Origin: a virus
Reading direction: 5' to 3' (one strand)
Length of the DNA: 20,204 nt
Virus record (IMG/VR): IMGVR_UViG_3300026292_000045
Location: 1-20,204 of that record
The notes beneath the pieces are model-generated. The model was not told the origin of the DNA. It saw only the letters and a program-made list of their open reading frames with translations, and made no database searches. Shown here piece after piece: positions 901 to 18,626 of this stretch; position 1 is the first letter of the stretch, and each line of letters starts with the position of its first letter. Made by a program: the position numbers and the translations under genes.

Positions 901-1743
901 TCATGTCCCATATAATGCTTCCAAAGGAGTGCGATTAATATCGTAGTTACATACAAGTAACTCCTTCTTCATTTTATTATCTGGCCTATGCTTCATACCA
1001 TAGGTAATTTTAAATTCTTCTTGATGGAAGTTACTATACGCTTCCTTTAAGGTATCAGAGTTATTGTAAGTTACAAACCAATCATGTTTGCAATCCTCAC
1101 ATGCCTTAACAAACTCCTCATGGTTGAATGACTTATGCAATTCAGCATTACTACCATAGAGATACACACCAATCTGATATGGTGGGTCTAGGTAGATGAA
1201 TGTGCCATCACCAGGAGCACTCATCACCTCAGAGTAATCAAGGTTAGTAATCTTCCAGTCTTGAATCAGACTAGAGATAAACTTAAGACCTGATGCTCCA
1301 CGAGTAGTAAAATTCTGACGTGATGCAGTAGCACTGAAGGAACTATTCTCTGTCAGTCCAGAGTAACTACACTTATTCAGAATCCAGAAGAGACATGCTC
1401 TCTCGAAATCATCTTCCTCTGTCTTAATATTCTCCTTAGATGCCTTAAACAACTCCTTGGCCTTATCCTCTGAGCTATGGTCTATCTTATACTCACGCAA
1501 TGCCTCACTCAGGTCATCACCTCTCTTCTGTAGTTGCACCCAGAAGTTATAGAGGTAAGTATACTTGTCATTAATCCACACAGGTACATCAGGATACTTC
1601 TGAGTGAATAGAAGTGCTACCGAAGCACCACCCACGAATGGTTCACGATACTCTTTAATATCATTAGGGAAACGTGGAATAAAATCTTTTGCTACCCTTG
1701 ATTTTCCACCAGGATAACGGAGTGGTGTCTTCAAATACTTCAT
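901..1743 (-). CDS. dam: DNA N6-adenine methyltransferase, Dam (D12) class
   Basis: A 280-residue enzyme that would transfer a methyl group from S-adenosylmethionine to N6 of adenine in DNA. The class hallmarks are present in order: the N-terminal TPLRYPGGKSR segment (residues 6-16), the AdoMet-binding motif EPFVGGASV (34-42), NKCSYSG (123-129) and the catalytic IYLDPPY with DPPY at 186-189. The length is normal for Dam/D12 enzymes. The ATG at 1743 overlaps the stop of the upstream oxygenase by ATGA, so the two are probably translationally coupled. No restriction endonuclease is visible beside it, so it looks like an orphan methylase, perhaps for protection or marking of phage DNA. The recognition site cannot be read from the sequence; GATC would be only a guess from the family name. 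Confidence 0.93.
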   Translation of the reverse strand: MKYLKTPLRYPGGKSRVAKDFIPRFPNDIKEYREPFVGGASVALLFTQKYPDVPVWINDKYTYLYNFWVQLQKRGDDLSEALREYKIDHSSEDKAKELFKASKENIKTEEDDFERACLFWILNKCSYSGLTENSSFSATASRQNFTTRGASGLKFISSLIQDWKITNLDYSEVMSAPGDGTFIYLDPPYQIGVYLYGSNAELHKSFNHEEFVKACEDCKHDWFVTYNNSDTLKEAYSNFHQEEFKITYGMKHRPDNKMKKELLVCNYDINRTPLEALYGT

Positions 1744-2399
1744 AATACTTCTAAGTTAAGTTGTGGCATGCCATGTGGACCTTGATTAATCTTTCCAGAA
1801 GGAAATGCATTGAAACTAATAGTCCATCTATCAAAATCCTCTAGTTGTCTACCAGAGAAATGTTTCAACCAACTGGGAAACAATATAAGTTTACCAGGAT
1901 TGGCTTCATACTTTTCATTGATGCCTAGATTCCATCCATCCATCTTCATCTTATCATCTTCCCAGATATCCAAGACATTATATGTCCTAGGAATACATGG
2001 GTCATCAAAGATTGTAGGAGCACCATCAGTAATGTAGTATACAGCACTGAGATATGCCATAGGATGACGGTGTAATGGATGTCCCCATCCAGTCCGTGCA
2101 GGTGCGTGATTGAACCATGATAGACTAATGTCTAACTTTTCGCAATCAAGTTTAAACTTCTCGACATATTGGTCGAGACAGTCCTCAAAGAATAACATGA
2201 TGCGATCTACACAATCATGCATCCTTTCTTTGTGTAGCGTAGGTTTGGATGTGATAACACCCTCAGGAAAATTATCCTGACCAGCAGGGAAACCCCTAGC
2301 CCACTCAGTAAATTCCTTTACCCACTCAGGAGAGTGACCGATGTCGGTATACTCCATGATTTTAACAGGGAAATAATGTAGTTCTTTCTCTTCAATCAT
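1740..2399 (-). CDS. Putative 2OG-Fe(II) oxygenase of the PF13759-like phage family, paralogue A
   Basis: A 219-residue protein, one of three tandemly placed paralogues. The conserved core reads HPLHRHPMAYLSAVYY near residues 107-122, then GAPTIFDDP, then GKLILFPSWLKH (H180), then R191 and the ISFNAFPSG strand. This is the double-stranded beta-helix layout of the small phage putative 2OG-Fe(II) oxygenases. At the usual HxD position I see HRH (H110, H112), so the facial triad is either atypical or supplied by a different acidic residue such as those in FDDP. Substrate unknown. The ATG at 2399 overlaps the upstream membrane-protein gene by 8 bases, and the stop overlaps the dam start by ATGA. 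Confidence 0.75.
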   Translation of the reverse strand: MIEEKELHYFPVKIMEYTDIGHSPEWVKEFTEWARGFPAGQDNFPEGVITSKPTLHKERMHDCVDRIMLFFEDCLDQYVEKFKLDCEKLDISLSWFNHAPARTGWGHPLHRHPMAYLSAVYYITDGAPTIFDDPCIPRTYNVLDIWEDDKMKMDGWNLGINEKYEANPGKLILFPSWLKHFSGRQLEDFDRWTISFNAFPSGKINQGPHGMPQLNLEVL

Positions 2400-2679
2400 T
2401 TTTAGTAATCCACCGAGGTAAATAAAATATCAACCAGGCGAGTGTCCAGAAGGTTGCTAATACCATTATATGTAAAACTCTATGAGAGTTGACTATTAGT
2501 CCACAAGTTACTAATGATATCCATAACCAATCTAAAGTGCCATGCAGTCTCCACCACAACTTATCACCTAACTTCTTCATCACCTTATCTCTAAGTCTAG
2601 CAAAGAATGGTGATACATGTCGCATCATCACAAATCCCTCATTAAAAAACATGAGGGTGAATCCAATCCAAAAAATCAT
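2392..2679 (-). CDS. Small membrane protein of unknown function
   Basis: I do not recognise a family for this 95-residue protein. It has a hydrophobic N-terminus (IFWIGFTLMFF, residues 2-12), a basic middle (RLRDKVMKKLGDK), and two further hydrophobic stretches around residues 50-63 (LWISLVTCGLIV) and 70-86 (HIMVLATFWTLAWLIFY), followed by a short charged tail. The most likely layout is two or three membrane segments in the host inner or thylakoid membrane. It is tightly packed between two oxygenase paralogues: its start overlaps the upstream stop by ATGA (2676-2679), and its stop overlaps the next start by 8 bases. This supports it as a real gene in the same transcription unit. Function cannot be inferred beyond membrane location. 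Confidence 0.75.
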   Translation of the reverse strand: MIFWIGFTLMFFNEGFVMMRHVSPFFARLRDKVMKKLGDKLWWRLHGTLDWLWISLVTCGLIVNSHRVLHIMVLATFWTLAWLIFYLPRWITKND

Positions 2680-3356
2680 TTTTTATAATCCTTCAAGGGT
2701 AATGGACCTAAGATGTCCCAACCACGTACCTTTGGTATGTTAACCATAGGTCGTTGCCAACCACCCATATTAACATCACCTTGTGGGAATGTATTAAATG
2801 CAATAGAAAATCTATCAACAGGATCTACATTCTCTATACTAGCATGGACTAACCAACTAGGAAAAATAATAAGTCCTCCAGGTCCTCCATGATAGAAGAA
2901 TCTACAATCGGATCCAGGTCCTCCGTCAAGATGTAATGATGACCACTCTCTCTTATCCACAGGGTCTAAGAAAATAGTAGGAGCACCTTCAGTCATGTAG
3001 TAGATACCACTAAGGTAAGACATTGGGTGTCTGTGAGCGTCATGATGGTGACCTGAACCACCTCTTGACTGATTACACCACGCTTTATTAACTATTATTC
3101 TATCACAACACCAGCCATTGTCAAAGTGTAGTGTGTCCACACACTGTTGAAACCAACGCATGATGTCTCTAAACTCAGGTAGTGTTTGAATATCATCAGT
3201 AGTACCAACACCACCACGTCCATTTGCATCGAGATTATAATTCCTATAATCTACATTCTGTGCTGCCTCCAGAGTCTTATTATTCAACTCAGGTTCTGCC
3301 TTAAAGGAGAAGCATCTGATAGGAAATAAATTCTCAGTAGTATACCTCTGTCTCAT
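2676..3356 (-). CDS. Putative 2OG-Fe(II) oxygenase of the PF13759-like phage family, paralogue B
   Basis: A 226-residue paralogue of the neighbouring oxygenases. The core is HHHDAHRHPMSYLSGIYY (residues 103-120), GAPTIFLDP, a glycine-rich insertion around 145-161, GLIIFPSWLVH (H171), R182 and SIAFNTFPQG. As in the other two paralogues, HRH (H108, H110) stands where HxD is usual. This copy also has an upstream HHD that could serve instead, which the other two lack. The N-terminal 90 residues are poorly conserved between the paralogues, which may point to different substrates. The start ATG at 3356 overlaps the upstream oxygenase stop by ATGA, and its own stop overlaps the membrane-protein start by ATGA. 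No substrate can be assigned. Confidence 0.77.
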   Translation of the reverse strand: MRQRYTTENLFPIRCFSFKAEPELNNKTLEAAQNVDYRNYNLDANGRGGVGTTDDIQTLPEFRDIMRWFQQCVDTLHFDNGWCCDRIIVNKAWCNQSRGGSGHHHDAHRHPMSYLSGIYYMTEGAPTIFLDPVDKREWSSLHLDGGPGSDCRFFYHGGPGGLIIFPSWLVHASIENVDPVDRFSIAFNTFPQGDVNMGGWQRPMVNIPKVRGWDILGPLPLKDYKK

Positions 3357-3955
3357 AATACATCTATATTCGCAATGCCTTGATTAATCTTTCCATATGG
3401 AAGAGCATTAAAGCTTATACTATATCTATCTATATCGGCCACACATGTGTCGTGAACCAACCATGAAGGGAAGATGATAAGTTTACCCTGCTTTGCATCC
3501 GATTGATAGACTTGAGGTCCATTGTCATCTACTGCACCATCAGGTGCGATGATAGGTAGGGTATGTATATCCCACTGACCTAATGCCCTCTGCATAAGAG
3601 GGTCATAAAATACTGTAGGAGCACCACCTGTAAGATAATATACTGCTGACCAATATGAATTAGCATGTCTGTGTGCTTCTTGTTGAGTACCAGGTCTATA
3701 ATGGTTAGCCCACATAGATGATATCTTAAACCCACCACAGTCATAATTTTTCTGCCTATGTAAATCAGTTAGACACTCATTAAACCACCGTGTCAATGAA
3801 TCAAACATAGGCATCTTATGCAGGTCAGGTCCTGCATTACGTACACCTGACCCTCTTTCTTTCCAAACCAACTGATTACATGTATGCACCCAATCATGCA
3901 ACCATGAATCATTCCATTCATATATTTCTATAGGATATATCTTCTTAACTTTCAT
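3353..3955 (-). CDS. Putative 2OG-Fe(II) oxygenase of the PF13759-like phage family, paralogue C
   Basis: A 200-residue paralogue. The core is QEAHRHANSYWSAVYY (residues 92-107) with HRH at 95-97, GAPTVFYDP, GKLIIFPSWLVH (H168), R177 and SISFNALPYG, ending with KINQG as in paralogue A. I chose the ATG at 3955 because the protein then starts MKVKKIYPIEIYEW, similar to the EKELHYFPVKIMEY start of paralogue A. Longer in-frame starts (up to 4003) would lie wholly inside the 57-residue gene upstream. With the chosen start the two genes overlap by 11 bases. The enzyme class is inferred from the fold signature, and the substrate is unknown. Confidence 0.77.
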   Translation of the reverse strand: MKVKKIYPIEIYEWNDSWLHDWVHTCNQLVWKERGSGVRNAGPDLHKMPMFDSLTRWFNECLTDLHRQKNYDCGGFKISSMWANHYRPGTQQEAHRHANSYWSAVYYLTGGAPTVFYDPLMQRALGQWDIHTLPIIAPDGAVDDNGPQVYQSDAKQGKLIIFPSWLVHDTCVADIDRYSISFNALPYGKINQGIANIDVL

Positions 3956-4118
3956 ATTTCTCTTTCCATTCAGCATACATGCGTCCATAGACCATGCCTT
4001 CATGGGATTTCAATGGGGATCCTTCTAGGATTTCCCTCTCACGTTTGTTGATAACGTTGTATGCATCAGAGAGGTAATCATTTTCCCAATTTTCAATCAT
4101 TTCTTTACTTGGATTCAT
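3945..4118 (-). CDS. Conserved-looking 57-residue hypothetical protein
   Basis: A short gene lying between gp44 and the oxygenase paralogues. It begins MNPSKEMIENWENDYLSD, continues with a charged helical middle (NVINKREREIL), and ends GRMYAEWKEKYES. There are no membrane segments, cysteines or recognisable motifs; the composition suggests a small soluble helical protein. Support for it being real: the ATG at 4118 overlaps the gp44 stop by ATGA, as at most junctions here, its reading frame is open over exactly the gap between gp44 and paralogue C, and it ends 11 bases inside the next gene. Function unknown. Confidence 0.72.
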   Translation of the reverse strand: MNPSKEMIENWENDYLSDAYNVINKREREILEGSPLKSHEGMVYGRMYAEWKEKYES

Positions 4119-5059
4119 TTGAATTCACACCTCATCATTAACTCTGTCATGAATGCAACCATATTAATCTCTTGGTCAACTACAAATGCAGATTTGTATT
4201 GATACTCAGATATAATAATGACTGCTTCGGGAATAGATCCTGCGTTAAGATAGTTATAAAGATTATCATACAACTTACGCATGATAACTTTAGGTTCGTT
4301 ATCCATATTCTGAGCAACCCACTTCTTCATGTTGGTAAACTCTTTCTTCCTAAGATAACCTACTACCTTTTCAATACTAAAATCATTTGATGACCCTAGA
4401 ATACCTGCATCAATCTTACCAGTTGCAGCATACCTTTGTAACTCATTAAGAGTCCTTCTAAAGTCTGGGAAGTGCTTCATTACAACTTCGGCCACAACCT
4501 TATCCTCGTAGGAAATCATTTCCATCTCAAGGATAACCTTAACTGCTTTAAAGAATTGCTCCGCTAGTGCTTTCTTCTCTGCTCCTTTGACCGAAAAATC
4601 GACCACTGAGCACCTACTATGGAGGGGTTCTATGACCTTATTTTTATAATTACACGTGAATATGAACCTGCAATTCTTCTGGAATTCCTCGATGGATGCT
4701 CTAAGTAATAGTTGTACGTCGGGGGTGGTATTATCTGCTTCATCAATAATGATAACCTTGTGACGAGCCCCAGATGTAAGAGAAACAGTACTAGCAAAGG
4801 TCTTTGCCTGATTGCGTACAGTGTCCAGGAATCTACCTTCATCAGACCCATTAATGACATAGAAATCTGCTCCTAATTCTTTACATAATGCTTTAGCAAT
4901 CGTAGTTTTACCCACACCTGCCGACCCTGACAGTAAAAGATTAGGACATTCACCTTGGTCAATGAATCCTTGAAACAATTTCTTCGTATGCTCAGGGAGA
5001 ATGCACTCCGCTACTGTCTGTGGTCGATACTTTTCTACCCAGAGAAACAGTTTATCCAT
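4115..5059 (-). CDS. 44: Clamp-loader large subunit gp44 (AAA+ ATPase)
   Basis: A 314-residue ATPase subunit of the sliding-clamp loader, close to T4 gp44 (about 319 residues). With gp62 it uses ATP to load the gp45 ring onto primed DNA for the phage polymerase. Visible motifs are the N-terminal WVEKYRPQTV (residues 7-16) of RFC-type loaders, Walker A GSAGVGKT (45-52), Walker B IIIDEAD (103-109), a sensor-1 region (FIFTCNY) and the SRC motif (148-150) that carries the trans-acting arginine. The start at 5059 overlaps the upstream oxygenase gene by 8 bases. In T4 gene 62 follows directly; here the 57-residue gene, oxygenases and dam intervene. Confidence 0.96.
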   Translation of the reverse strand: MDKLFLWVEKYRPQTVAECILPEHTKKLFQGFIDQGECPNLLLSGSAGVGKTTIAKALCKELGADFYVINGSDEGRFLDTVRNQAKTFASTVSLTSGARHKVIIIDEADNTTPDVQLLLRASIEEFQKNCRFIFTCNYKNKVIEPLHSRCSVVDFSVKGAEKKALAEQFFKAVKVILEMEMISYEDKVVAEVVMKHFPDFRRTLNELQRYAATGKIDAGILGSSNDFSIEKVVGYLRKKEFTNMKKWVAQNMDNEPKVIMRKLYDNLYNYLNAGSIPEAVIIISEYQYKSAFVVDQEINMVAFMTELMMRCEFK

Positions 5060-5624
5060 AATCAGTGTTAATAATAATGCGGTTGGGATGTTCCTTAGGT
5101 GAGTGCCCTGTATGTAGGTGACTACCTTGGAATACTAGGAGTCTGTTTGCTTTAGGTTTAATCCTTGCCATCTCAGTAAAAGTTCCTAACCCTTGTTGGT
5201 CACCTTGCTCATTGAAGAGAATAGTATCACCATCAGAGTCATTAACATAATAGATAGATGCCATGTGTGGGTGCTCAAAGTCTACATGTGGATGATGGAC
5301 AATCCCATTAGGATTATACATGGTCATGTCTGCTCTGCATCTAATACGTGCATTACTGCACCCAATTAAATCTTGAATCTGGAATACCAGTGGCATGATT
5401 AGAGAGGTAGCAGGATTGGGTTGAATTTGTACATCATCCCTAATAAAATTATGACTAAATCCTTGCTTACCTAACTCAGGATCTGCCAGAGCTCCTCTGC
5501 TGATATCCGCTTGATAAAACCACTCCATCTCATTACCACCAAGATAGTTTAAGAGTTCTCGGTGGTAACTAGGAGTTAGAAAATCGTCCTTAAGGCTCCA
5601 AGGCAATGTAGTAAGAGAGGTCAT
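5052..5624 (-). CDS. Putative 2OG-Fe(II) oxygenase with canonical HxD...H triad
   Basis: A 190-residue protein with a complete oxygenase signature: H113-x-D115 in HPHVDFEHPHMASIYYVND, then DGDTILFNE, then KANRLLVFQGSHLHTGHSP with a distal metal histidine (probably H171) and R182 in NRIIINTDY as the likely 2-oxoglutarate binder. It is clearly divergent from the three HRH paralogues downstream. Similar proteins are frequent in marine T4-like phages, with unknown substrates. The start at 5624 overlaps the end of gp45 by 35 bases, longer than other overlaps here. No good Shine-Dalgarno sequence is visible and the next ATG is at residue 33, so the exact start is uncertain. It sits between gp45 and gp44 in the replication block. 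Confidence 0.82.
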   Translation of the reverse strand: MTSLTTLPWSLKDDFLTPSYHRELLNYLGGNEMEWFYQADISRGALADPELGKQGFSHNFIRDDVQIQPNPATSLIMPLVFQIQDLIGCSNARIRCRADMTMYNPNGIVHHPHVDFEHPHMASIYYVNDSDGDTILFNEQGDQQGLGTFTEMARIKPKANRLLVFQGSHLHTGHSPKEHPNRIIINTDYG

Positions 5625-6309
5625 TATGAGTCAATGAAATAAACGCTGCAATATTCTTCTTACTTATTGTAACATGGTAACTACCATCACTTAGTTTCAA
5701 GTTTTCAACTTTGAAACAATAGCAGAAGTTACGACGCTCATCATTCATCTCCGAAGGTCTTTCAAACGTGACTTTCTTCAGTGGTAGTGAGAAGACATTA
5801 GAAGTATCATTCTTCTTGTCCTTAACACATACACTATACTCACCTTCAAATCCATAGACACACAAATCTTCTACCCCATACACCTTCGCTGCTTGCAACA
5901 GTTGTTGAATGTCCTGTTGAGGAAGGTCAAAGTGAAGTTCCTTATCAGGAAGGTCACCATTAAAATCTGGTGGGGTTACAATGATCTCAGGGTCACTGTA
6001 ATAGAATACTGTCTTACCCTTAGTCTCCTCATCAAAGATGATTACCCTCTTATCATCAGGGAAATTAAGGACTGGTTCCTTAAACAGAGACAATGCTCCA
6101 AGGAACAAAGGCAAATCATAGATTGCCATCTGCTCAGGAATAAATTCTTGAATAGATGTCATAGCAATGATATTCTTGTTGACTGAAATAGTCTCAAGAA
6201 GTTTACCTTGTGGGATAAGGACAGACTTATTGATTGTGCTGAAGTTACGCAGCAAATCAACAGTCTTCTTACTCAATTTTACTGTTCTAAAATTCTGTAG
6301 TTGTGTCAT
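5590..6309 (-). CDS. 45: Sliding clamp gp45 (DNA polymerase processivity factor)
   Basis: A 239-residue protein matching T4 gp45 (228 residues) in layout: LSKKTVDLLRNFSTIN near the N-terminus (T4 has LSKDTTALLKNFATIN), MAIYDLPLFLGALSLF near residues 61-76 (T4 AIYDLNGFLGILSL), a DIQQLLQAAKVYGV helix in the second domain, and YYIALEP at the C-terminus (T4 YVVALE). Three copies form a ring that tethers the polymerase to DNA; in T4 the DNA-bound clamp also activates late transcription with gp55 and gp33. The N-terminus is about 10 residues longer than in T4. The ATG at 6309 overlaps the DUF3310-like stop by ATGA. Confidence 0.96.
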   Translation of the reverse strand: MTQLQNFRTVKLSKKTVDLLRNFSTINKSVLIPQGKLLETISVNKNIIAMTSIQEFIPEQMAIYDLPLFLGALSLFKEPVLNFPDDKRVIIFDEETKGKTVFYYSDPEIIVTPPDFNGDLPDKELHFDLPQQDIQQLLQAAKVYGVEDLCVYGFEGEYSVCVKDKKNDTSNVFSLPLKKVTFERPSEMNDERRNFCYCFKVENLKLSDGSYHVTISKKNIAAFISLTHNDLSYYIALEP

Positions 6310-6620
6310 TCGTAATCAATCAAAGACGGAGGGGTGCCAATTTGGACTGGTTTGTCATCAGGGTACGACGTACCTGAGAAATAATACAATAGTATAGCAT
6401 AGTGAATGATTTTTAGCACATCACTCTTATGCTGACTCTTCTTTTTGTACCGAGATGCATACTTAATGATATTGGACTGACAGAATTGCTCTGCTGTCCC
6501 GATTGATTCAAGGAGATCCAAAGTTTGAATCCCCTTTTCATCATTAGAGTAATGACTTCGATATGTCTGAGAGATATAATCTGATACGACTTTAATCGTA
6601 TCATCTTCTCTGTATTTCAT
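6306..6620 (-). CDS. DUF3310-like (SaV-like) small phage protein
   Basis: A 104-residue protein resembling DUF3310, a small helical family common in phages and of unsettled function, sometimes labelled nucleotide kinase-like without strong evidence. The visible pattern is SHYSNDEKGIQTLDLLESI (residues 22-40), FCQSNIIKYASRYKKK (46-61) and DVLKIIHYAILLYYF (67-81). These correspond to the family's HY.....IE..., GN.IKY..R...K and DL.KA..Y blocks. The family's usual GN is SN here. The start at 6620 lies 4 bases after the end of cobS, and the stop overlaps the gp45 start by ATGA. It is probably co-transcribed with gp45. Confidence 0.72.
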   Translation of the reverse strand: MKYREDDTIKVVSDYISQTYRSHYSNDEKGIQTLDLLESIGTAEQFCQSNIIKYASRYKKKSQHKSDVLKIIHYAILLYYFSGTSYPDDKPVQIGTPPSLIDYE

Positions 6621-6624
6621 GATA

Positions 6625-7719
6625 TCACGTGGCTAGAATGTTGTCAAGGTTTTCGATGTCTACCTCATTGTCTATCTTATCATACAACTCAAGGAATGAC
6701 TGCTTTGTCTCGTCATCAAAACGATTCAAGCACACCTTGATTGCCTTAACTCTATCTTTAAAGATAGCAAAGGCACGGATGATATGCACAAGACGACGTG
6801 TAGAGATAACTTCATCCACTCCACCCTCATTAAAGGTCTTACGGATGATGTCTGCCCATGATGTCAAGTTAGAAATGTACTTTTCATCACAGCAATTCAA
6901 CTCTTTACAGTAGTTGTTGAGCATTCTTGTCTCTGTCTTAGGAGATGCATACTCTTGCTCGAAAGTTATGGGGAATCTTTCAAGGAAGGCTTCATTGAGC
7001 ACGTTAGTTCCAATAAATCTTCCGTCGTCTGAACCCTTACCTTTAGTATTTGCGGTTGCGATGACGGTAAATCCGTCTCTTGGCTTAACGAATCTTCCAA
7101 CCTTTTTAAGAAAAACTCCATTTCCTTCAAGGATACTCTGAAGGCAGAGAATTTTGTTAGAGGCAAGGTCGATCTCGTCAAGGAGCAAGACTGAACCTCG
7201 CTCAAGGGCTTCGATGACTGGGCCGTTATGCCAGACGGTGTTGCCATCAACAAGACGGAAACCACCAATAAGATCGTCTTCATCAGTCTCCACTGTAATG
7301 TTTACACGTATTAAATCTCTCTTTGTTTGAGCACATGCTTGCTCCACAGAGAAAGTCTTTCCATTACCAGATAATCCAGTAACGAAAATAGGATAGAAGA
7401 TTTTACTATTAATAATCTTCTTCAAGTCATTGAAGTTTCCGAATGGTACGTAGTTTGGATCTTTCTCTGGTACCAAATTCTTAACCTCAGGTGATACAAG
7501 GGTCACTGTCTGCTCAAGTTGCTGACGTGCTTCTTCTACTGTCAAATTCCAGACTCCTCGCTTCACCTTATATTGTAGCAAATATTTTGTTACCGTTTGG
7601 TATGCAAGACCGAAATGGTCACAGGCTTTTAGTAGTTGCTCGGTCTTAACATCAGTACCGAACTCACCTACTAGATAATCTCTCAAGTCTTCTGGGGTGA
7701 CTGATACTTTAACTGGCAT
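6625..7719 (-). CDS. cobS: CobS-like MoxR-type AAA+ ATPase
   Basis: A 364-residue AAA+ ATPase of the CobS/MoxR branch. CobS with CobT and CobN forms cobaltochelatase in aerobic B12 synthesis; cyanophages carry cobS widely and usually without the rest of the complex. Motifs: Walker A GLSGNGKT (115-122), the conserved TDEDDLIGGFRLVDG block (145-159), Walker B VLLLDEID (177-184), sensor-1 VIATANT (219-225) and a FLERFP segment with a likely arginine finger (R248). The N-terminal 85 residues look like a small helical domain. I chose the ATG at 7719; the frame extends to a GTG at 7755, but that GTG lies inside the shared 23-base upstream motif and lacks a ribosome site. A vWA-domain gene lies two genes upstream, a typical MoxR partner. 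Confidence 0.9.
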   Translation of the reverse strand: MPVKVSVTPEDLRDYLVGEFGTDVKTEQLLKACDHFGLAYQTVTKYLLQYKVKRGVWNLTVEEARQQLEQTVTLVSPEVKNLVPEKDPNYVPFGNFNDLKKIINSKIFYPIFVTGLSGNGKTFSVEQACAQTKRDLIRVNITVETDEDDLIGGFRLVDGNTVWHNGPVIEALERGSVLLLDEIDLASNKILCLQSILEGNGVFLKKVGRFVKPRDGFTVIATANTKGKGSDDGRFIGTNVLNEAFLERFPITFEQEYASPKTETRMLNNYCKELNCCDEKYISNLTSWADIIRKTFNEGGVDEVISTRRLVHIIRAFAIFKDRVKAIKVCLNRFDDETKQSFLELYDKIDNEVDIENLDNILAT

Positions 7720-7735
7720 TGAATCGTTTAATTTG

Positions 7736-7758
7736 TTTATACTATTATTATACACAGG
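7736..7758 (+). promoter_or_regulatory. 23-base imperfect palindrome upstream of cobS (copy 1)
   Basis: The plus strand reads TTTATACTATTA, then T, then TATACACAGG. It matches the minus strand at 10548-10526, upstream of the vWA gene, at 20 of 23 positions. The core TATAyTAwTArTATA is an imperfect dyad. On the minus strand it contains a TATAAT hexamer (7752-7747), so it could be a -10 element, an operator, or both. It ends 16 bases before the cobS ATG and occupies most of the gap between cobS and the upstream gene. No matching -35 is visible. Confidence 0.4.
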
Positions 7759-7759
7759 T

Positions 7760-8284
7760 TTAGACTAAAGTGGTGGACAACCATGACGGTTTCTTTTCTG
7801 GCACACGCTTGTAATTATCGTGAACCCATGGCTTACTTGCAACATATAATCTATATGCTTCAACAGTACTACATTTAAGAGTCTGAAACTCTAAAGGCAT
7901 TGCCCTAACGAATGGACTATGTTTCTCTGGACAACCTGATTCCATCTGTATCAGACCTGCTAGTCTAATACTTGTTTCACATGCGTGTTTCTTACCATAC
8001 CGAGACTCATACTCATTACATAACGAGATACCATGCTGCAACAACCATTGAAAGTTATGGTCATTCTTTGCTGCCCATTTGGTACATGGGTGATTACGGA
8101 AGGCACCCTTCTCTGTCTTATAAGGAGTGCCATCCTTCTTCAATACAGGTCCTATATTCCAATACCACTTAGAAAAGACCAACGCAATCATTTGCGTGGT
8201 CTCTAATGGCATCTTAACAATGTGTTTGTCTGGTAGAGAGAATGCTGCTAGTGCAGGATCCTCATCTACAGCAAAGATATTCAT
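7760..8284 (-). CDS. Small phage protein of the MNIFxxDxDPxxAA/DKHxVKM family (pyrimidine-dimer glycosylase-like)
   Basis: A 174-residue protein starting MNIFAVDEDPALAAFSLPDK followed by HIVKMPLETTQM (residues 21-32). This opening matches a widespread phage family (MNIF.LD.DP..AA....DKH.VKM..E..QM) that databases often link to pyrimidine-dimer DNA glycosylases. It is not like T4 DenV in sequence, so a repair function is only suggested. A second conserved-looking block is FRNHPCTKWAAKND (62-75) with N, H, C and W. The ATG at 8284 overlaps the stop of the vWA gene by ATGA and its stop is followed by the cobS leader. Its fixed place between the vWA and CobS genes may be functional or simply positional. 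Confidence 0.65.
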   Translation of the reverse strand: MNIFAVDEDPALAAFSLPDKHIVKMPLETTQMIALVFSKWYWNIGPVLKKDGTPYKTEKGAFRNHPCTKWAAKNDHNFQWLLQHGISLCNEYESRYGKKHACETSIRLAGLIQMESGCPEKHSPFVRAMPLEFQTLKCSTVEAYRLYVASKPWVHDNYKRVPEKKPSWLSTTLV

Positions 8285-10518
8285 GCAATTTGTGTGATAA
8301 AGGAAGAAAGAATCTTCTTGTTGTTTGCTTTTGCTTTTAGGGATTTCTTAAATGCATTTTTAATCTGTCCCTTAGTTGCATCTTCATCAACTTCAAACTC
8401 AACGTCAGTATTTAGAATCTTATGGGAGAAAAAGTAAATCTCTTGATACCCTAATATACTAGCACCAACAGTTTTGTTTTTAGTCCACTCCTTATACTTC
8501 TTAACATACTCACTACGCTCAAGTTCTCTACCCAAGTAGTTGGTAACCTCACGTGGATTAGCGATACGGAAACCTAAGAAGTTACAGTGAGGAAACTTAC
8601 CCTTCATATACATGAGAAGTTGCTTAGTAATATCCCTATCGTCACCATTACCATTACCATAGACTCTACCTTTCTTACGATCTCTCAACTGAGTTGAGTA
8701 ACCGATAGATGCACGATGTACCATTTCCTCCTCTTCACCAGTAGCGTAGTTCTTTTGAATGGATTTTCTCCACATATTAGACCACTGTGCTTCACCATCA
8801 GATAGGATACTTACATGGCACTTCTCAAGATTATATTCCTGTTGGAATTTTGGAATGATAGTCTGGAAACATGCAATTGCTTCATTCAATGGAGTGCCAC
8901 CGAGTGACATATGCTGAGGAATTCTGTCAGGAATATCAGGCCACTTCTCTAGGAGTCCATCTTGCATCTGTCTACGGAATAGTTTGAAACTTTGACCGTA
9001 ACGACTGTCGATTGACATACAAACTCTCCAGATATCCTTAGCATAAGTATCAAAATCTTGGTTGTTAAGTTTACTACTCAAGAAGTTAAGGAGATGGAAG
9101 TGTTGGTCTATATGTAATGTATTTTCACGTCCTTCATAGTTTTCCTTGTAACCTTCAGACCAGTGACCATCATTTACGAATGCATATACCTCGAAAGGAA
9201 TCTGTGTTTTCCTACAGAAGAAGCATAGTGCTAGTAGTTGCTTGTATGTGTCAAGGATACACTCAGACATACTACCTGACCAGTCTAGTAGGAATAGAAG
9301 ACCATGATTCTTACCATCAGGAATGGTAGTAACCTTCTTAAAGATGTCGTTATTCCACTTATATGTGTGAAGTTTACTTGTGTCGAGGATACCAGTCCTA
9401 GAAACAGATGCACGTGCATATGCAGCAGCAGACTTCTTCATTTCAAACTCTTTAGTGAGGTAGTTTACTTCACGATTAGAGTCACGTTTGAATTTGTTAA
9501 ACTCACCGTCCACATATGAGAAGTCATTACATGTGTGGTAGTAGTGACTAGGGTTAGTGAATTGCTCTGACTGATAGAATTTTTCAGTCTCTTCATGAAT
9601 CCTCTGAGGACTAACAACTACTTGATTGATATCAATGTTATCAATCTCCATGTAAACTGGTTGGTATCCAGAATTATTTTGCTGCATCATATCTTTTAGT
9701 GCAGACTCAAGATTCTGAGCAGTCAATGATTCACTTGACTCACCACCTTGTCTCTGTTGAGTCTCCTCGTTTTCTTGCTCGTAAGAAGGAGTCTCTAGGT
9801 CAGCAGGTTCTTGATTAGGACGTTGCTGAGGTGTTGCAGGTTGGTCTGCATCATCAGACTCTTCCTCACCTTCCTGTCCTTCCTTACCACCAACCAAATC
9901 GTTGAGTGAGAAGTCTTCTGTATCACCTGATTCAGCAGTGCCTAGAGATTCTTGCTCTTTCTGCTGCTCATTTTCATATTGATATATTGCTAGTGCTGCC
10001 TTCAATGCTTCATCAAAGGTCTCAGCAGCACCTGTAAGGTCTCTGAGGGGTATCTCAGAGTCATCGAAGGGGATAAGTGCATATGCACCAATTTTAAAGT
10101 AAAGATTGATTCTATCAATCAACTTGAGGGTATTAGGATCCTCATCTCTGATACCAAAGAAATCTTTTTGGTCTAGTTGTTGATAACCTTGATAGAAATC
10201 CTTCTGAAGACCAGGAAACTTCCTCTTCATTAGTTTTTCGATACGTGCGTCTTCAGTTACGTTAACGTATGACTTAGGAAGGGATTTTGCTACATCAGTC
10301 CAGTCCTCAGTGGGTGTAAACAGTGCATGCCCGACCTCATGTCCAACCAACATGTTGTATACACGGTCTGAGCAGTCCCACAATGGTAATGTTAGTACTC
10401 TTGTGTCAACATTGAATGATGCAGTCTCGCAATCCCTATGTTCGACGAGGAGGTTTTCTGTTGCAAGCAACTTTGCTAGTGCTCCCTTGACCTCGTTATA
10501 TTGAAAGCGATTTGTCAT
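8281..10518 (-). CDS. CobT-like vWA-domain protein with N-terminal HEVGH metalloprotease motif
   Basis: A 745-residue protein with three parts. Residues 1-180 contain HEVGHALFTP with H60, E61 and H64, and NVTED with N86 and E89 about 25 residues later, an arrangement like zinc gluzincin sites. Residues about 185-285 are a low-complexity acidic, Q/E/S-rich linker. Residues about 400-700 form a von Willebrand A domain with a complete MIDAS: DWSGSMS (D412, S414, S416), GGTPL (T542) and LSDGE (D574). The acidic linker plus vWA resembles CobT and other MoxR partners. A CobS/MoxR ATPase follows two genes later. A role as metal-dependent adaptor or protease worked by that ATPase is an inference; a cobalamin role is not shown. 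ATG at 10518, preceded by GAG six bases upstream. Confidence 0.82.
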   Translation of the reverse strand: MTNRFQYNEVKGALAKLLATENLLVEHRDCETASFNVDTRVLTLPLWDCSDRVYNMLVGHEVGHALFTPTEDWTDVAKSLPKSYVNVTEDARIEKLMKRKFPGLQKDFYQGYQQLDQKDFFGIRDEDPNTLKLIDRINLYFKIGAYALIPFDDSEIPLRDLTGAAETFDEALKAALAIYQYENEQQKEQESLGTAESGDTEDFSLNDLVGGKEGQEGEEESDDADQPATPQQRPNQEPADLETPSYEQENEETQQRQGGESSESLTAQNLESALKDMMQQNNSGYQPVYMEIDNIDINQVVVSPQRIHEETEKFYQSEQFTNPSHYYHTCNDFSYVDGEFNKFKRDSNREVNYLTKEFEMKKSAAAYARASVSRTGILDTSKLHTYKWNNDIFKKVTTIPDGKNHGLLFLLDWSGSMSECILDTYKQLLALCFFCRKTQIPFEVYAFVNDGHWSEGYKENYEGRENTLHIDQHFHLLNFLSSKLNNQDFDTYAKDIWRVCMSIDSRYGQSFKLFRRQMQDGLLEKWPDIPDRIPQHMSLGGTPLNEAIACFQTIIPKFQQEYNLEKCHVSILSDGEAQWSNMWRKSIQKNYATGEEEEMVHRASIGYSTQLRDRKKGRVYGNGNGDDRDITKQLLMYMKGKFPHCNFLGFRIANPREVTNYLGRELERSEYVKKYKEWTKNKTVGASILGYQEIYFFSHKILNTDVEFEVDEDATKGQIKNAFKKSLKAKANNKKILSSFITQIA

Positions 10519-10687
10519 GTAATCTCGTGTGTATATTAATAGTATAATAGGAAACCCTCCGCTTGGGAGGGTTTAGTAGACACTTCTTCAAGTGTCTTCG
10601 CCTCTCTCGTGCAGACCGTAGTGCCTGCGGCTTGAGATGACGTTTAGCATCCTTCTTACTATGATGCTGCCAGTTTGGAAAAATCAT
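10496..10687 (-). CDS. Possible 63-residue highly basic protein
   Basis: An open frame from an ATG at 10687, inside the 3' end of gp46, to a TAA at 10496, inside the start of the vWA gene. The ATG follows AGAAGGTCA, a fair Shine-Dalgarno with good spacing. The product starts MIFPNWQHHSKKDAKRH and is rich in Lys and Arg (for example LRSARERRRHLKK), so it could be a nucleic-acid-binding helix. Against it: the same DNA holds two clean stem-loops, uses CGG, CGA and AGG arginine codons, and carries the palindrome before the vWA gene, all of which fit a non-coding terminator or leader. I cannot decide between the two. Confidence 0.3.
   Translation of the reverse strand: MIFPNWQHHSKKDAKRHLKPQALRSARERRRHLKKCLLNPPKRRVSYYTINIHTRLHDKSLSI
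10526..10548 (-). promoter_or_regulatory. 23-base imperfect palindrome upstream of the vWA gene (copy 2)
   Basis: The minus strand reads ATTATACTATTA, then A, then TATACACACG, matching copy 1 before cobS at 20 of 23 positions but in the opposite orientation. It ends 7 bases before the vWA ATG at 10518. TATTAT and TATACT within and beside it could act as a -10. Its placement directly after a stem-loop suggests a terminator-then-promoter junction. A shared operator for the CobS/vWA pair is an inference from the two copies. Confidence 0.4.
10552..10574 (-). terminator. Stem-loop downstream of gp46
   Basis: Perfect 9-base-pair stem AAACCCTCC / GGAGGGTTT around a 5-base loop. On the minus strand it is followed by TTT and then CC, so the T-run is short and comes mostly from the stem. 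It lies between gp46 and the vWA gene and immediately precedes the promoter-like palindrome. It may be a weak intrinsic terminator or an RNA processing/stability element. Confidence 0.5.
10578..10597 (-). other. Second stem-loop between gp46 and the vWA gene
   Basis: An 8-base-pair perfect stem AGACACTT / AAGTGTCT around a 4-base loop (GAAG on the minus strand), three bases from the neighbouring stem-loop. No T-run follows, so it is not a terminator by itself. Tandem hairpins of this kind are typical of structured intergenic RNA. Confidence 0.4.
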
Positions 10688-12320
10688 TGACCTTCTCAAA
10701 ACGTAGGGTTTTCTCAAATTTATCAAGAAGTAGCTCACCTTTGTGAGAAATGACAAATAAATTAACATTCTTACCCAGACTCTTAAGAATCTTGAGTAAT
10801 TCATCAGTACTAGCGTCATCTAGGGATGAATCAAAGACCTCATCCAGTATAAGAAGGTTAGTAGCAGAAGAATTCTTGAGTCTTGCTATCTCTCTCCATG
10901 TAAAGAGGAGTGCTAGGTCAATTTTCTGCTTCTCTCCCTCTGAGAAGGACGCATAAGAGAATTCATCACGAAATCTACTCTTAATAACCTCATTAAACTC
11001 CTCATCAAGGGTGAAATTGATGTAGAAGTCCATCGACTGTAGATATTTATTGATTAATTGGTTAATTATAGGGATAAACTTAGATATAATCTTAGATTTA
11101 ATGCCACTGTCCTTTAATAGTGACCCAACTACCTGTAAATCACCGTAATCTTCATTAACTTTAGCACATCTCTGCTCTGTATCCCCTAAAAGATTCTTAA
11201 ATTCAAGTAACTGTAACTTTTCACTGTCAATATCAGGTGTATCTTCTTCAACTTGCTTAGTGAGTCTCTTCATTTCCTTCTTTAGACTCTTATTTTCGTG
11301 TGTGATACCGTTTATTTCCTCTACTACACCTTTAAATTCTTCTATAGTTGTATTAGCACGGTTAAGTGCGTCTGTAATAGTTGCTAGACCATTCTTAAAC
11401 CTCTCTTGTCTACCAGTAGCACCATCAATTAACTCACTCTTGTCCATTAACACCTGATTACAAGTAGGACAGTTATCATTCTCCCAATAGAATTTTAAAT
11501 CTTTCTCTGCTTTGTCTAGGTTATGCTTAATCTTGACACGCATATCCTTCATCTCATCATATCTGAATTGAATCTCTTGCATACCTACAAGTTTATCAGT
11601 CAATCTAGTATGCTGTGCCTCATTACCTGACATCGTTTTCTTGATGTCAGACATTCGATTCCATGCTACTTGCTTATTCTCTGAGTTAATCTTCTCCATA
11701 CTAAGGATAGACTTCTCTTGCATCTCTACCTGTTGTCCTGCAAGTTTCAACTCATGCTCACAGTCTTTAATAATATCTCTTGCTCCTTTAACTCTGTCTT
11801 TCAACAGGTTATTCATTCTTGAGAAGACCTGGATGTCGAGTAAATCTTCGATAACTTCTCTACGGACAGGTGCGTTGAGTTGCATGAAGGGGACAAATGT
11901 GGATGAACCAAGGATGACAACCTGTGTGAATGACTTGAAGTTGAGTTTGAGTATGTTTGTTTCAAGGTACTTCTGGTAGTCTTTTGTTGCAGCATCTTGG
12001 TCAAGTAATGTACCGTTTCTATAAATTTCAAATACATTTGGTTTTCTACCTCGGATAATCTTATAGTATGTACTCCCAATAGTAAATTCAATCTCCACTA
12101 TAGTGTCACGTTCATTAATACTGTTAACTAACTGTGACTTTGTGATTTTACGAAAGGGTCTATCGAACAAAACAAAGCACAGGGCATCCAACATCGTGGA
12201 CTTACCTGCACCATTAGCACCCACTACAAGATGGGATGAAGACTCGGTAATATTTACTTGTGTAAATGTATTGCCAGTGGCAAGGAAATTCTTCCAACGA
12301 ATCTTTTCAAAAGTGATCAT
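10659..12320 (-). CDS. 46: Recombination nuclease subunit gp46 (Rad50/SbcC-like)
   Basis: A 553-residue SMC-type ATPase, the same size as T4 gp46 (560). With gp47 it forms the Mre11-Rad50-like complex that resects DNA ends for recombination-dependent replication. Seen in order: Walker A GANGAGKST (34-42), a coiled coil from about residue 165, the zinc-hook CPTC (284-287) at its apex, a return coiled coil to about 395, the ABC signature SFSEGEKQK (458-466) and Walker B LLILDE (489-494), followed by a VISHKGE segment as the switch histidine. The ATG at 12320 overlaps the DUF3110-like gene by 14 bases. The stop is TAG at 10659. Confidence 0.97.
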   Translation of the reverse strand: MITFEKIRWKNFLATGNTFTQVNITESSSHLVVGANGAGKSTMLDALCFVLFDRPFRKITKSQLVNSINERDTIVEIEFTIGSTYYKIIRGRKPNVFEIYRNGTLLDQDAATKDYQKYLETNILKLNFKSFTQVVILGSSTFVPFMQLNAPVRREVIEDLLDIQVFSRMNNLLKDRVKGARDIIKDCEHELKLAGQQVEMQEKSILSMEKINSENKQVAWNRMSDIKKTMSGNEAQHTRLTDKLVGMQEIQFRYDEMKDMRVKIKHNLDKAEKDLKFYWENDNCPTCNQVLMDKSELIDGATGRQERFKNGLATITDALNRANTTIEEFKGVVEEINGITHENKSLKKEMKRLTKQVEEDTPDIDSEKLQLLEFKNLLGDTEQRCAKVNEDYGDLQVVGSLLKDSGIKSKIISKFIPIINQLINKYLQSMDFYINFTLDEEFNEVIKSRFRDEFSYASFSEGEKQKIDLALLFTWREIARLKNSSATNLLILDEVFDSSLDDASTDELLKILKSLGKNVNLFVISHKGELLLDKFEKTLRFEKVNDFSKLAAS

Positions 12321-12582
12321 TCTTAGTTTGTGGCGGTACTACAACTTCATCAGGTGAGATGATTGTAAAGGCATACCCATGCAATTTACAATTCTCTTTT
12401 ACTTGGTCTTCTTCAACCTCAGTTACATCGAGCAGTCGAGGATAATCGATTGCCTTCAACATATCATAATAACGTGTAGCATCGTCTTTGTCAAGGAATA
12501 TCTGAACAACACGCTCCACAGTCTTGTCATCCCTGACAGCATATACTCCATTAGTTTTATTATCTGTCAGGATAAACATCAT
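12307..12582 (-). CDS. DUF3110-like small protein
   Basis: A 91-residue protein lying between gp47 and gp46, where T4 has small unrelated genes. It resembles DUF3110, a family of unknown function common in cyanobacteria: an N-terminal strand with a NGVYAV segment, DKDDATRYYDMLKAIDYP (residues 31-48), a VTEVEED block, C65, GYAFTII and VVPPQ near the end. The acidic DDA...Y helix and the terminal PP are the family-like traits. No catalytic motif is visible. The ATG at 12582 overlaps the gp47 stop by ATGA; a second ATG directly after it is equally possible. A cyanobacterial origin of the gene is plausible but unproven. Confidence 0.72.
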   Translation of the reverse strand: MMFILTDNKTNGVYAVRDDKTVERVVQIFLDKDDATRYYDMLKAIDYPRLLDVTEVEEDQVKENCKLHGYAFTIISPDEVVVPPQTKNDHF

Positions 12583-13616
12583 ACCTCTTGTGCTTCCATG
12601 TATAACGACTTGAGTATTCCAAATATCTTATCTTTGTTTTCAAATTCTGCTACACATGCTTCAAGTATGGTCAGTGTATCTTCTACCTCAGCATCCCAAC
12701 CAGAATCATCTGCCAAATCATATGACATGTCCTCGATAATTTTAAGGTCTGCTAAGTCTACTGCTTGTAATCTTCTGCATACTTGGTCAAATTTAACTTG
12801 ATCCTCTTTCTGTTCTACAATAAGTTTAACATAAGTACCCTCCAACTTCTTAAGCATGTGTGGAGTTAATTTAATATCGTCTTTATAATAGATTTTCTGG
12901 AAAGTATCGTATGGATTCCTATAAAATTTTAACTTTTGTGTAGAAGTATTTAGGATGTGGAATCCTCTATCACTACCAAAGTCATTCCAGTACAACTGAC
13001 ATGGATTACCTAGGTAAGTAACGTTTCCTTTCTGACTTTTACAGTGGAAATGTCCTGAGCATACCATATCAAACTTAGAAAAATCAGAAGCATCATCACC
13101 ATGTGTCATAGTGACACCAGGAATAGGATTAAATCCTTTTAATTCCAGATGACCCATACAATACTTGGCATCTGTATCTGCAATTGCTTCAAATGTTGCT
13201 TCCCTATTCTCATCACAAATCCAAGGGACAAGCATCATCTTCTCACCTGCTATAAGCCTCTCACCTGGACAATAAATGATCTCAATATTATCAAACTCCC
13301 CAAGAAGAAGCTCAGGGGAATTAACACGGAGAGTATTTTTGAAATAAATGTCATGGTTACCTATCAACATGGTCATTTTTATACCCCTATCTTGTAGAGG
13401 TCTAAACCACATCTCCTTTGCTGCTTCAAGAGAGTGGAAGTTAACACCCTTCCTTCTATCAAAGGTGTCACCTAAACACAGTATCTCAGTAATACCTTCT
13501 TTATCAATGGTGGGTAGTACCTTCTCTGTATAAAATTTTCTATATCTCTCAACGTAGTGTTGGTTATCATTACGGACTCCGAAGTGTTGATCCGTGATTA
13601 TAAGGACACTGCTCAT
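12579..13616 (-). CDS. 47: Recombination nuclease subunit gp47 (Mre11/SbcD-like)
   Basis: A 345-residue metallophosphoesterase, close in size to T4 gp47 (339). It is the nuclease partner of gp46 in end resection and replication restart. The phosphodiesterase motifs appear in order: I with D9 and H11 (ITDQHFG), II GDTFDRR (49-55), III GNHD (86-89), IV a histidine in MGHLELKG (H156), and V SGHFH (187-191). The remaining C-terminal region is the capping and gp46-binding part. The ATG at 13616 overlaps the gp55 stop by one base (TGATG), so the two genes are probably translationally coupled. Confidence 0.97.
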   Translation of the reverse strand: MSSVLIITDQHFGVRNDNQHYVERYRKFYTEKVLPTIDKEGITEILCLGDTFDRRKGVNFHSLEAAKEMWFRPLQDRGIKMTMLIGNHDIYFKNTLRVNSPELLLGEFDNIEIIYCPGERLIAGEKMMLVPWICDENREATFEAIADTDAKYCMGHLELKGFNPIPGVTMTHGDDASDFSKFDMVCSGHFHCKSQKGNVTYLGNPCQLYWNDFGSDRGFHILNTSTQKLKFYRNPYDTFQKIYYKDDIKLTPHMLKKLEGTYVKLIVEQKEDQVKFDQVCRRLQAVDLADLKIIEDMSYDLADDSGWDAEVEDTLTILEACVAEFENKDKIFGILKSLYMEAQEV

Positions 13617-17843: not shown

Positions 17844-17968
17844 CCTTTATAATCCTTAAACTCCAATTTCATAACAGGATCCTCTTCAAAAAGAATATCA
17901 CCACCTTCCTCTTGGACTTTGGCAAGTTCCTTCTCGTCAGTCTCCCACAATTCTTCTATCTCTTTCAT
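17840..17968 (-). CDS. Hypothetical acidic protein, 42 residues
   Basis: A short open frame starting MKEIEELWETDEKELAKV and ending LEFKDYKG, strongly acidic, with no motif. Its TGA overlaps the next ATG as ATGA, as at most junctions here. The start overlaps the end of pcyA by 32 bases and lacks a Shine-Dalgarno, which weakens the call. A late-promoter-like CATAAATA lies 21 bases before this ATG. Confidence 0.55.
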   Translation of the reverse strand: MKEIEELWETDEKELAKVQEEGGDILFEEDPVMKLEFKDYKG

Positions 17969-18626
17969 CAGGGGTACAGAATAAAATATTATTTATGTAA
18001 GACATAGCCCATTCCTTATCGAACCATGCAGACAAAGTAGCAATGGTTTTCTGATTCTTTCTCTGTTGCTTACTATAATGTATCTGGTCATCTAATGCAA
18101 TCATTGCATCGATCCAATCTGTCTTCTCTGCCTTATCAATAGCATCACGATAGATCTCAAGATACTCACGTAGTACCAAATAGAAATCAATACACTCCTT
18201 CTCTGTCCTAAGACGTTGAAACTTCATATAATCAGAGAAGATATCACCCCACTCTGGTCTCAACTGTGGTTCTTTAAACCTATACTTATTACTTGCTTTA
18301 GCAATGTTTGGATATACCCACTCCGTACCTCTAACAGGTGACACATCAACGATAGTAATCTTTCTATACTTACTAGCAATAACATCACACCCAAATATAG
18401 GTAGGTTATATTCAAAGTCAGGGAAGAATACACAGTGTAGTACATCTAATCCCTTTACATAGCAAGTCTCCAGATGAATCTTCCTGAGACCTGGTGCTTT
18501 CCACATCTCATTCTTAATCCAAAAGTCCTCACCCTTTTCAATTAATTCAAATTCACAGTCGATTTTCTCATACCCTGTAATGCTCTCAGCAACGGTACGA
18601 ATCAACCTCGCAATGTCATCTACCAC
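17937..18626 (-). CDS. pcyA: Phycocyanobilin:ferredoxin oxidoreductase-like bilin reductase
   Basis: A 229-residue ferredoxin-dependent bilin reductase that would reduce biliverdin IXalpha to phycocyanobilin in the host cell. The PcyA-like features are RKIHLE with E53, LDVLHCVFFPDFEYNLPIFG with H64, and GCDV with D81. These are spaced like Glu76, His88 and Asp105 of Synechocystis PcyA, although one residue is missing between the first two. Further PcyA-like blocks are VDVSPVRG, LRPEWGDIFSDYMKF and WAMSYINNILF. It fits PcyA better than the phage PebS enzyme. The start is GTG at 18626, preceded by AGGGA and one base after the previous stop. It lies in the region downstream of gp23. Confidence 0.87.
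   Translation of the reverse strand: MVDDIARLIRTVAESITGYEKIDCEFELIEKGEDFWIKNEMWKAPGLRKIHLETCYVKGLDVLHCVFFPDFEYNLPIFGCDVIASKYRKITIVDVSPVRGTEWVYPNIAKASNKYRFKEPQLRPEWGDIFSDYMKFQRLRTEKECIDFYLVLREYLEIYRDAIDKAEKTDWIDAMIALDDQIHYSKQQRKNQKTIATLSAWFDKEWAMSYINNILFCTPDERDRRIVGD
17990..17997 (-). promoter_or_regulatory. Late-promoter-like element inside the pcyA end
   Basis: The minus strand reads CATAAATA, seven of eight bases of the T4 late consensus, 21 bases before the ATG of the 42-residue gene. It lies inside pcyA codons, so it may be chance. Confidence 0.3.

What the first reader, a model, noticed from the sequence alone, without database searches (positions are those of the whole stretch)
6625..10518. 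CobS-type ATPase paired with an HExxH-vWA protein may be a MoxR-vWA machine rather than B12 synthesis
The vWA protein has a full MIDAS (D412, S414, S416, T542, D574), an acidic CobT-like linker, and an N-terminal HEVGH with a downstream NVTED as in zinc proteases. The AAA+ ATPase follows two genes later with all motifs intact. No CobN-like chelatase is in the window. The combination fits an ATPase-driven, metal-dependent remodelling or proteolytic system on a host or virion target better than a partial cobaltochelatase.
Basis: partly seen in the sequence, partly recalled or inferred. Interest (0 to 1): 0.75.

Follow-up and report, generated by a model that had tools for sequence, protein, structure and literature searches.

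The report
Phage CobT-like ATPase-linked metalloprotease machine
Nearly all sequenced T4-like cyanophages carry a gene pair filed as 'vitamin B12 synthesis' (cobS) plus 'peptidase'; the sequences show instead an ATP-driven protein-remodelling ring whose partner protein keeps an intact zinc-protease-like site that true B12-making CobT has lost, so the usual vitamin-B12 reading of these ocean phage genes is doubtful and testable.

Summary
The 745-aa vWA protein (8281-10518, -) has HEVGH(60-64), N86..E89-D90.R92, an acidic linker and a complete MIDAS. A MoxR/CobS-type AAA+ protein with intact motifs follows; one gene lies between them. In viral contigs fetched by CobS alone, 67 of 67 loci with room carry the vWA gene, and 58 of 58 full-length copies keep HExxH, NxxEDxR and MIDAS. 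The predicted N-domain (pLDDT 92) most resembles gluzincin metallopeptidases (weak E-values); the full model's best PDB match is NorD's vWA domain from the NorQD machine. The protein is in fact a distant CobT homologue, linked through phage CobTs (SSU5, RHph_X66). Yet 0 of 45 cellular CobTs checked keep HExxH, while most phage CobT lineages do. Neither window protein passes a cobaltochelatase model; only 2 of 50,697 phage records hold a CobN match, neither a cyanophage. Best reading: a MoxR AAA+ ring driving a metallopeptidase-vWA adaptor, encoded in the replication module. Proteolysis, substrate and complex formation are inferred. A similar architecture was proposed in 2021 for other jumbo phages: a new member of a known kind.

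The parts
8281..10518 (-). CobT-like protein, 745 aa: gluzincin-like N-domain, acidic linker, helical 'finger', vWA/MIDAS domain (phrog_459 'peptidase')
   Evidence: (phrog_459 E 5.5e-246)
9958..10518 (-). N-terminal domain, residues 1-187, predicted metallopeptidase fold
   Evidence: AF2 pLDDT 92.3; Foldseek PDB top hits abylysin, jannalysin/selecase, then ArdC, IrrE (best E 0.042, prob 0.98)
10327..10341 (-). HEVGH, residues 60-64, predicted zinc ligands H60/H64 and general base E61
   Evidence: invariant in 55 sequences; HExxH in 58 of 58 CobS-anchored loci
10237..10263 (-). NVTEDARIE, residues 86-94; E89 or D90 the likely third metal ligand
   Evidence: N86, E89, D90, R92 invariant; D90 changed in cellular CobT together with H60/H64
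9739..9936 (-). acidic disordered linker, residues 195-260
   Evidence: pLDDT below 50
8284..9519 (-). long helix (334-368, conserved K[EQ]FE[MC]KK) plus vWA domain and C-terminal helix
   Evidence: best Foldseek PDB hit NorD vWA in NorQD, 9qh6_G, E 2.3e-4
9271..9285 (-). MIDAS motif 1, DWSGS 412-416
   Evidence: D412, S414, S416, T542 and D574 invariant in 51 sequences
7760..8284 (-). intervening gene, pyrimidine-dimer DNA glycosylase family (PF03013), overlaps the vWA gene by 4 bases
   Evidence: E 9.9e-12; absent between the pair in many relatives
6625..7755 (-). CobS/MoxR-type AAA+ ATPase (phrog_249); probable start at base 7719
   Evidence: AAA_5 8.8e-17; TIGR01650 74.5 bits against cut-off 558.55
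7354..7377 (-). Walker A GLSGNGKT, residues 127-134
   Evidence: invariant or nearly invariant
7168..7191 (-). Walker B, residues 189-196 (VLLLDEID)
   Evidence: D193, E194, D196 invariant
4115..6620 (-). replication neighbours on one side: DUF3310 protein (6306-6620), sliding clamp (5590-6309), 2OG oxygenase (5052-5624), clamp loader (4115-5059)
   Evidence: clamp and loader named by synteny with annotated relatives
10659..13616 (-). recombination neighbours on the other side: gp46-like (10659-12320) and gp47-like (12579-13616)
   Evidence: named by synteny with annotated relatives

Best explanation
The pair is a MoxR-type AAA+ machine. The CobS-like protein forms the ATPase ring. The CobT-like protein is its adaptor: the long helix before the vWA domain enters the ring pore, as in NorQD; the MIDAS and linker hold a client protein; and the N-terminal gluzincin-like domain, joined by a flexible acidic linker, binds zinc and cleaves the client or a partner peptide. 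ATP turnover twists vWA against the N-domain and presents the client. Because the genes sit among phage replication and recombination genes, the client is most likely a phage replication or host DNA-associated protein rather than a corrin ring or a virion protein. Shown here: homology, intact sites, obligate pairing, fold class, location. Inferred: ring-adaptor assembly, zinc binding, proteolysis, client identity. Origin: CobT of the cobaltochelatase is a relative whose N-domain has lost this metal site.
For: Metal-site residues invariant in 55 diverged N-domains; HExxH, NxxEDxR and MIDAS in 58 of 58 loci chosen without reference to them, including the non-ligand base E61, which a purely structural metal site would not need. 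Predicted N-domain fold nearest gluzincins and other zincins. Full model nearest NorD's vWA from the NorQD complex; the NorQD pore-finger mechanism is in PMC13036017. Cellular CobT: 0 of 45 keep HExxH; H60/E61/H64/D90 are replaced while P45, E89, R92, E94 and G103 persist. Phage CobTs from enterobacterial, rhizobial, roseobacter, Vibrio and Gordonia phages mostly keep HExxH. Low scores to cobaltochelatase models. CobN matches in only 2 of 50,697 phage records, neither a cyanophage. Replication-gene neighbours in unrelated phages too.
Against: No biochemistry. Foldseek hits to peptidases are individually weak (best E 0.042). Two phage lineages (nickie, ANB28) lost the HExxH yet keep the pair, so catalysis is not always needed. 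Cyanobacterial hosts do have CobN and lack CobT, so cooperation with host CobN is not excluded. Proximity to replication genes is only circumstantial for the client.
Confidence: 0.62

Rival explanations
1. Viral cobaltochelatase module: phage CobS and CobT join the host CobN and raise cobalamin or pseudocobalamin production for nucleotide synthesis (the published auxiliary-gene view).
For: Liu et al. 2021 (PMC8651126) state that the cyanophage 'peptidase' is a misannotated cobT and propose hijacking of host CobN. Host-lineage genomes carry CobN and lack CobT. Remote N-domain and architecture homology to CobT.
Against: CobS scores 74.5 bits against a 558.55 cut-off and the vWA protein has no hit to the CobT model TIGR01651. 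The invariant zinc site is absent from all 45 cellular CobTs checked. The same kind of pair, with HExxH, occurs in phages of Salmonella, E. coli, Klebsiella and V. cholerae, which by general knowledge lack CobN, and in a Pelagibacter phage.
Confidence: 0.13
2. MoxR-vWA metallopeptidase acting in virion assembly, cleaving or folding structural proteins.
For: Proposed by Iyer et al. 2021 (PMC7824862) for a MoxR plus metallopeptidase-vWA pair in group 2.2 jumbo phages, by analogy with the Acidianus two-tailed virus.
Against: In cyanophages and in several unrelated phages the genes lie with replication, recombination, primase, ligase or polymerase genes, not structural genes. Small non-T4 phages carry relatives too.
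Confidence: 0.12
3. Metal-insertion chaperone: the HExxH site holds a metal for delivery to a phage metalloenzyme (ribonucleotide reductase or the neighbouring 2OG-Fe(II) oxygenases), as NorQD inserts iron.
For: Best structural analogue is NorQD; several 2OG-Fe(II) oxygenase genes lie nearby.
Against: E61 of HExxH is invariant although it is not expected to be a ligand. The pair occurs in phages whose neighbouring genes include no such oxygenases.
Confidence: 0.1

Closest known systems
phrog_459 'peptidase' plus phrog_249 cobS, core genes of T4-like cyanophages
   Same: This is that pair: E 5.5e-246 and 3.6e-133; same gene order as P-SSM2, P-HM2, P-TIM40
   Different: Nothing essential; function not assigned experimentally in anything read here
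MoxR plus metallopeptidase-vWA pair of group 2.2 jumbo phages (Iyer et al. 2021, PMC7824862)
   Same: Same architecture and pairing as described in the text
   Different: Cyanophages are group 2.1 there and are not mentioned for this pair in the passages read; the link to CobT/CobS is not made there; sequence homology not tested here
Cobaltochelatase CobS/CobT (TIGR01650, TIGR01651, PF06213, PF11775)
   Same: AAA+ and vWA-MIDAS pair, acidic linker, homologous N-domain via phage intermediates
   Different: Far below equivalog cut-offs; zinc site intact; no CobN in cyanophages
NorQ/NorD (MoxR AAA+ with vWA adaptor)
   Same: Best PDB structural match of the vWA part
   Different: About 10% identity; NorD's N-domain was not compared for a metal site here
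Minigluzincins (abylysin, selecase), ArdC, IrrE
   Same: Predicted fold class and HExxH
   Different: Weak Foldseek E-values; those are separate proteins without vWA

Membership tests
Aerobic cobaltochelatase CobST | CobS equivalog TIGR01650 at or above cut-off | tested here: not met
   74.5 bits against 558.55
Aerobic cobaltochelatase CobST | CobT equivalog TIGR01651 at or above cut-off | tested here: not met
   no hit at E up to 1; no match in the window
Aerobic cobaltochelatase CobST | CobN large subunit available | tested here: inconclusive
   not in cyanophages; present in picocyanobacterial genomes
Aerobic cobaltochelatase CobST | Co2+ insertion activity | not testable with these tools
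   needs biochemistry
Aerobic cobaltochelatase CobST | CobT N-domain homology (PF06213) | tested here: inconclusive
   no direct Pfam hit and hhalign weak; linked through phage CobTs: N-domain profile 38-44 bits to SSU5 and Klebsiella phage, which hit PF06213 at 2.1e-37 and 2.6e-23
MoxR AAA+/vWA pair | AAA_5/MoxR-type ATPase with intact Walker A/B, sensor 1, arginines | tested here: met
MoxR AAA+/vWA pair | vWA domain with complete MIDAS | tested here: met
   D412, S414, S416, T542, D574 invariant; NorD vWA match
MoxR AAA+/vWA pair | conserved gene pairing | tested here: met
   67 of 67 loci with room; equal Synechococcus, Cyanophage and Prochlorococcus record counts
MoxR AAA+/vWA pair | physical complex, finger in pore | not testable with these tools
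Zincin (gluzincin) metallopeptidase | HExxH plus downstream acidic ligand | tested here: met
Zincin (gluzincin) metallopeptidase | zincin fold | tested here: inconclusive
   confident model; top hits are metallopeptidases but E at least 0.042
Zincin (gluzincin) metallopeptidase | peptidase activity | not testable with these tools
   needs biochemistry
Group 2.2 jumbo-phage MoxR/metallopeptidase-vWA pair | sequence homology to ASV44728/ASV44729 | not tested
   architecture compared from the text only

The most novel reading that the evidence does not exclude
The cyanophage cobS/'peptidase' pair is not a B12 auxiliary metabolic gene set but an ATP-driven metalloprotease of the replication module, and the cobaltochelatase subunit CobT is itself descended from such a machine, its N-terminal domain being a dead gluzincin.
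Probability: 0.5. Interest if true: 0.75.

Novelty: new member of a known kind. Interest (0 to 1): 0.55.

Why it matters
cobS is counted in viral ecology as a marker of phage-driven vitamin B12 metabolism and is a core gene of abundant ocean cyanomyophages. If the pair is a protein-processing machine, those inferences are wrong, and a widespread host-takeover or replication factor has been overlooked. The two published readings ('cobT mistakenly called peptidase' and 'MoxR plus metallopeptidase-vWA') are reconciled by one testable idea: CobT's N-domain is a dead version of the phage metallopeptidase domain.

Tried and rejected
Direct profile-profile comparison of the cyanophage vWA protein and Rhodobacteraceae CobT gave only a weak local match, though it covers the right motif; the link rests on intermediates instead. 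phmmer and profile searches of PDB sequences found no relative of the vWA protein. Pfam and PADLOC gave nothing useful for it; PF13203 (metallopeptidase-vWA, DUF2201_N) does not match the window. CobN negatives from TIGR02257 are not used as evidence, since the control Caulobacter, which has CobT, was also missed. Most genome-collection hits (L099-L125) look like phage contigs binned with bacteria, so they are not used as cellular homologues. Motif counts from the genome scan are biased, because HEVGHAL was a search pattern; the CobS-anchored count avoids that. A ring-adaptor co-fold was not possible.
Full report
What is there. The window is a 20.2-kb viral record from a T4-like cyanophage or close relative, with gp23, a bilin reductase and D12-class methyltransferase genes by profile, and gp46/gp47, clamp and clamp-loader genes by synteny. 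They match phrog_459 'peptidase' and phrog_249 'porphyrin biosynthesis'.

Is the motif meaningful? In 13 phage proteins sharing as little as 21% identity with the window protein, H60, E61, H64, N86, E89, D90, R92 and all five MIDAS residues are invariant. In 55 N-domains the metal-site residues make up most of the ten invariant columns. To avoid selection bias, loci were fetched with the AAA+ protein alone. Sixty-seven of 76 carried the vWA gene. The nine that did not have CobS within 700 bases of the contig end. All 58 full-length vWA proteins had HExxH, NxxEDxR and MIDAS. Isolate phages agree: both genes are found in 365 Synechococcus, 61 Cyanophage and 24 Prochlorococcus records; these are counts by name, not a record-by-record match.

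Fold. The N-domain model is confident (pLDDT 92.3). Its top PDB matches are small gluzincins (abylysin, jannalysin/selecase), then ArdC, IrrE, MATCAP, M61 and M1 peptidases, although each E-value is weak (best 0.042). Among viral models it matches phage and haloarchaeal-virus proteins named CobT or vWA. The full-length model (pLDDT 81.5) has a disordered linker at 195-260 and a 35-residue helix before the vWA domain. Its best PDB match is the NorD vWA domain bound to NorQ, a machine reported to work by a finger in the AAA+ pore and twisting of the linker (PMC13036017).

Relation to CobT. Liu et al. 2021 (PMC8651126) call the cyanophage 'peptidase' a misannotated cobT; Iyer et al. 2021 (PMC7824862) describe a MoxR plus metallopeptidase-vWA pair in other jumbo phages. 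Both fit. The cyanophage N-domain profile scores 38-44 bits against CobTs of Salmonella, E. coli, Klebsiella and Rhizobium phages. Those proteins match Pfam CobT_C strongly and Pfam CobT N-terminal to varying degree (2.1e-37 for SSU5, 0.0029 for RHph_X66). Phage CobTs keep HEVGH, HEVAH, HEAGH, HECYH, HEIGH or HELAH; nickie and ANB28 have lost it. Of 45 cellular CobTs none keeps it. The aligned stretch reads RG..DS.AL in place of ..LDHEVAHIL, with H60, E61, H64 and D90 replaced while P45, E89, R92, E94 and G103 persist. Two low-scoring bacterial proteins with HExxH (L195, L196) look phage-like. Independent gain of the same site in many phage lineages is less parsimonious than loss in CobT; that step is inference. 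Since D90 changes together with the histidines, D90 as well as E89 is a candidate third ligand.

Is it a cobaltochelatase? CobS scores 74.5 bits against a cut-off of 558.55, and the vWA protein does not match TIGR01651. CobN is found in 2 of 50,697 phage records, neither a cyanophage. Host-lineage genomes have CobN and no CobT, so a role with host CobN cannot be excluded. But related HExxH pairs occur in phages of enterobacteria and V. cholerae and in a Pelagibacter phage. By general knowledge, not tested here, these hosts lack CobN.

Context. The pair lies between gp46/gp47 and the clamp and clamp loader in cyanophages, Pelagibacter and Ochrobactrum phages. In nickie, ANB28, RHph_X66 and SSU5 it lies next to primase, ligase or DNA polymerase genes. 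This argues for a replication-stage role over a structural one, weakly.

Verdict. The proposed mechanism (ATP-driven ring plus metallopeptidase-vWA adaptor) is the best explanation at about 0.62, with proteolysis, zinc binding, client and assembly untested. Membership in the cobaltochelatase equivalogs fails; remote homology to CobT stands on intermediates.

Noticed in passing
window 1740-2399, 2676-3356, 3353-4003, 5052-5624: Four 2OG-Fe(II)-oxygenase-like genes in under 4 kb beside the clamp genes; three were confirmed by Pfam, 3353-4003 only by resemblance to its neighbours.
   Followed up: partly
window 7760-8284; L155:4256-4750: A pyrimidine-dimer DNA glycosylase gene sits between the pair here and close beside cobS-cobT in the unrelated Roseobacter phage CRP-810.
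   Followed up: no
L006:5902-9454: In Pseudoalteromonas phage XG4 the vWA domain and the HEVSH domain are separate ORFs and CobS is split over two frames.
   Followed up: partly
L016:3442-5526 and L150:3983-5968: Phages nickie and ANB28 keep the CobT/CobS pair but have lost both histidines of HExxH while keeping the Glu.
   Followed up: yes
L129:1714-4988 and L130:2656-5756: Two Chloroflexota genomes have an HExxH-vWA ORF directly after a P-loop ORF: possible cellular relatives of the machine.
   Followed up: partly
L104: A 188-kb contig filed as Nonlabens xiamenensis resembles cyanophages in this region; several other bacterial assemblies seem to hold phage contigs.
   Followed up: no
OQ572414.1:16457-19957: A Pseudomonas phage record (Y13) carries a CobN-like protein, possibly host contamination.
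   Followed up: no
L017:5941-6825: Staphylococcus phage 812 has a CobS-like ATPase; no vWA partner was recognised within 6 kb by the vWA profile.
   Followed up: partly
window 17937-18626 and 19463-20203: Ferredoxin-dependent bilin reductase and the C-terminal part of gp23 at the window end.
   Followed up: no
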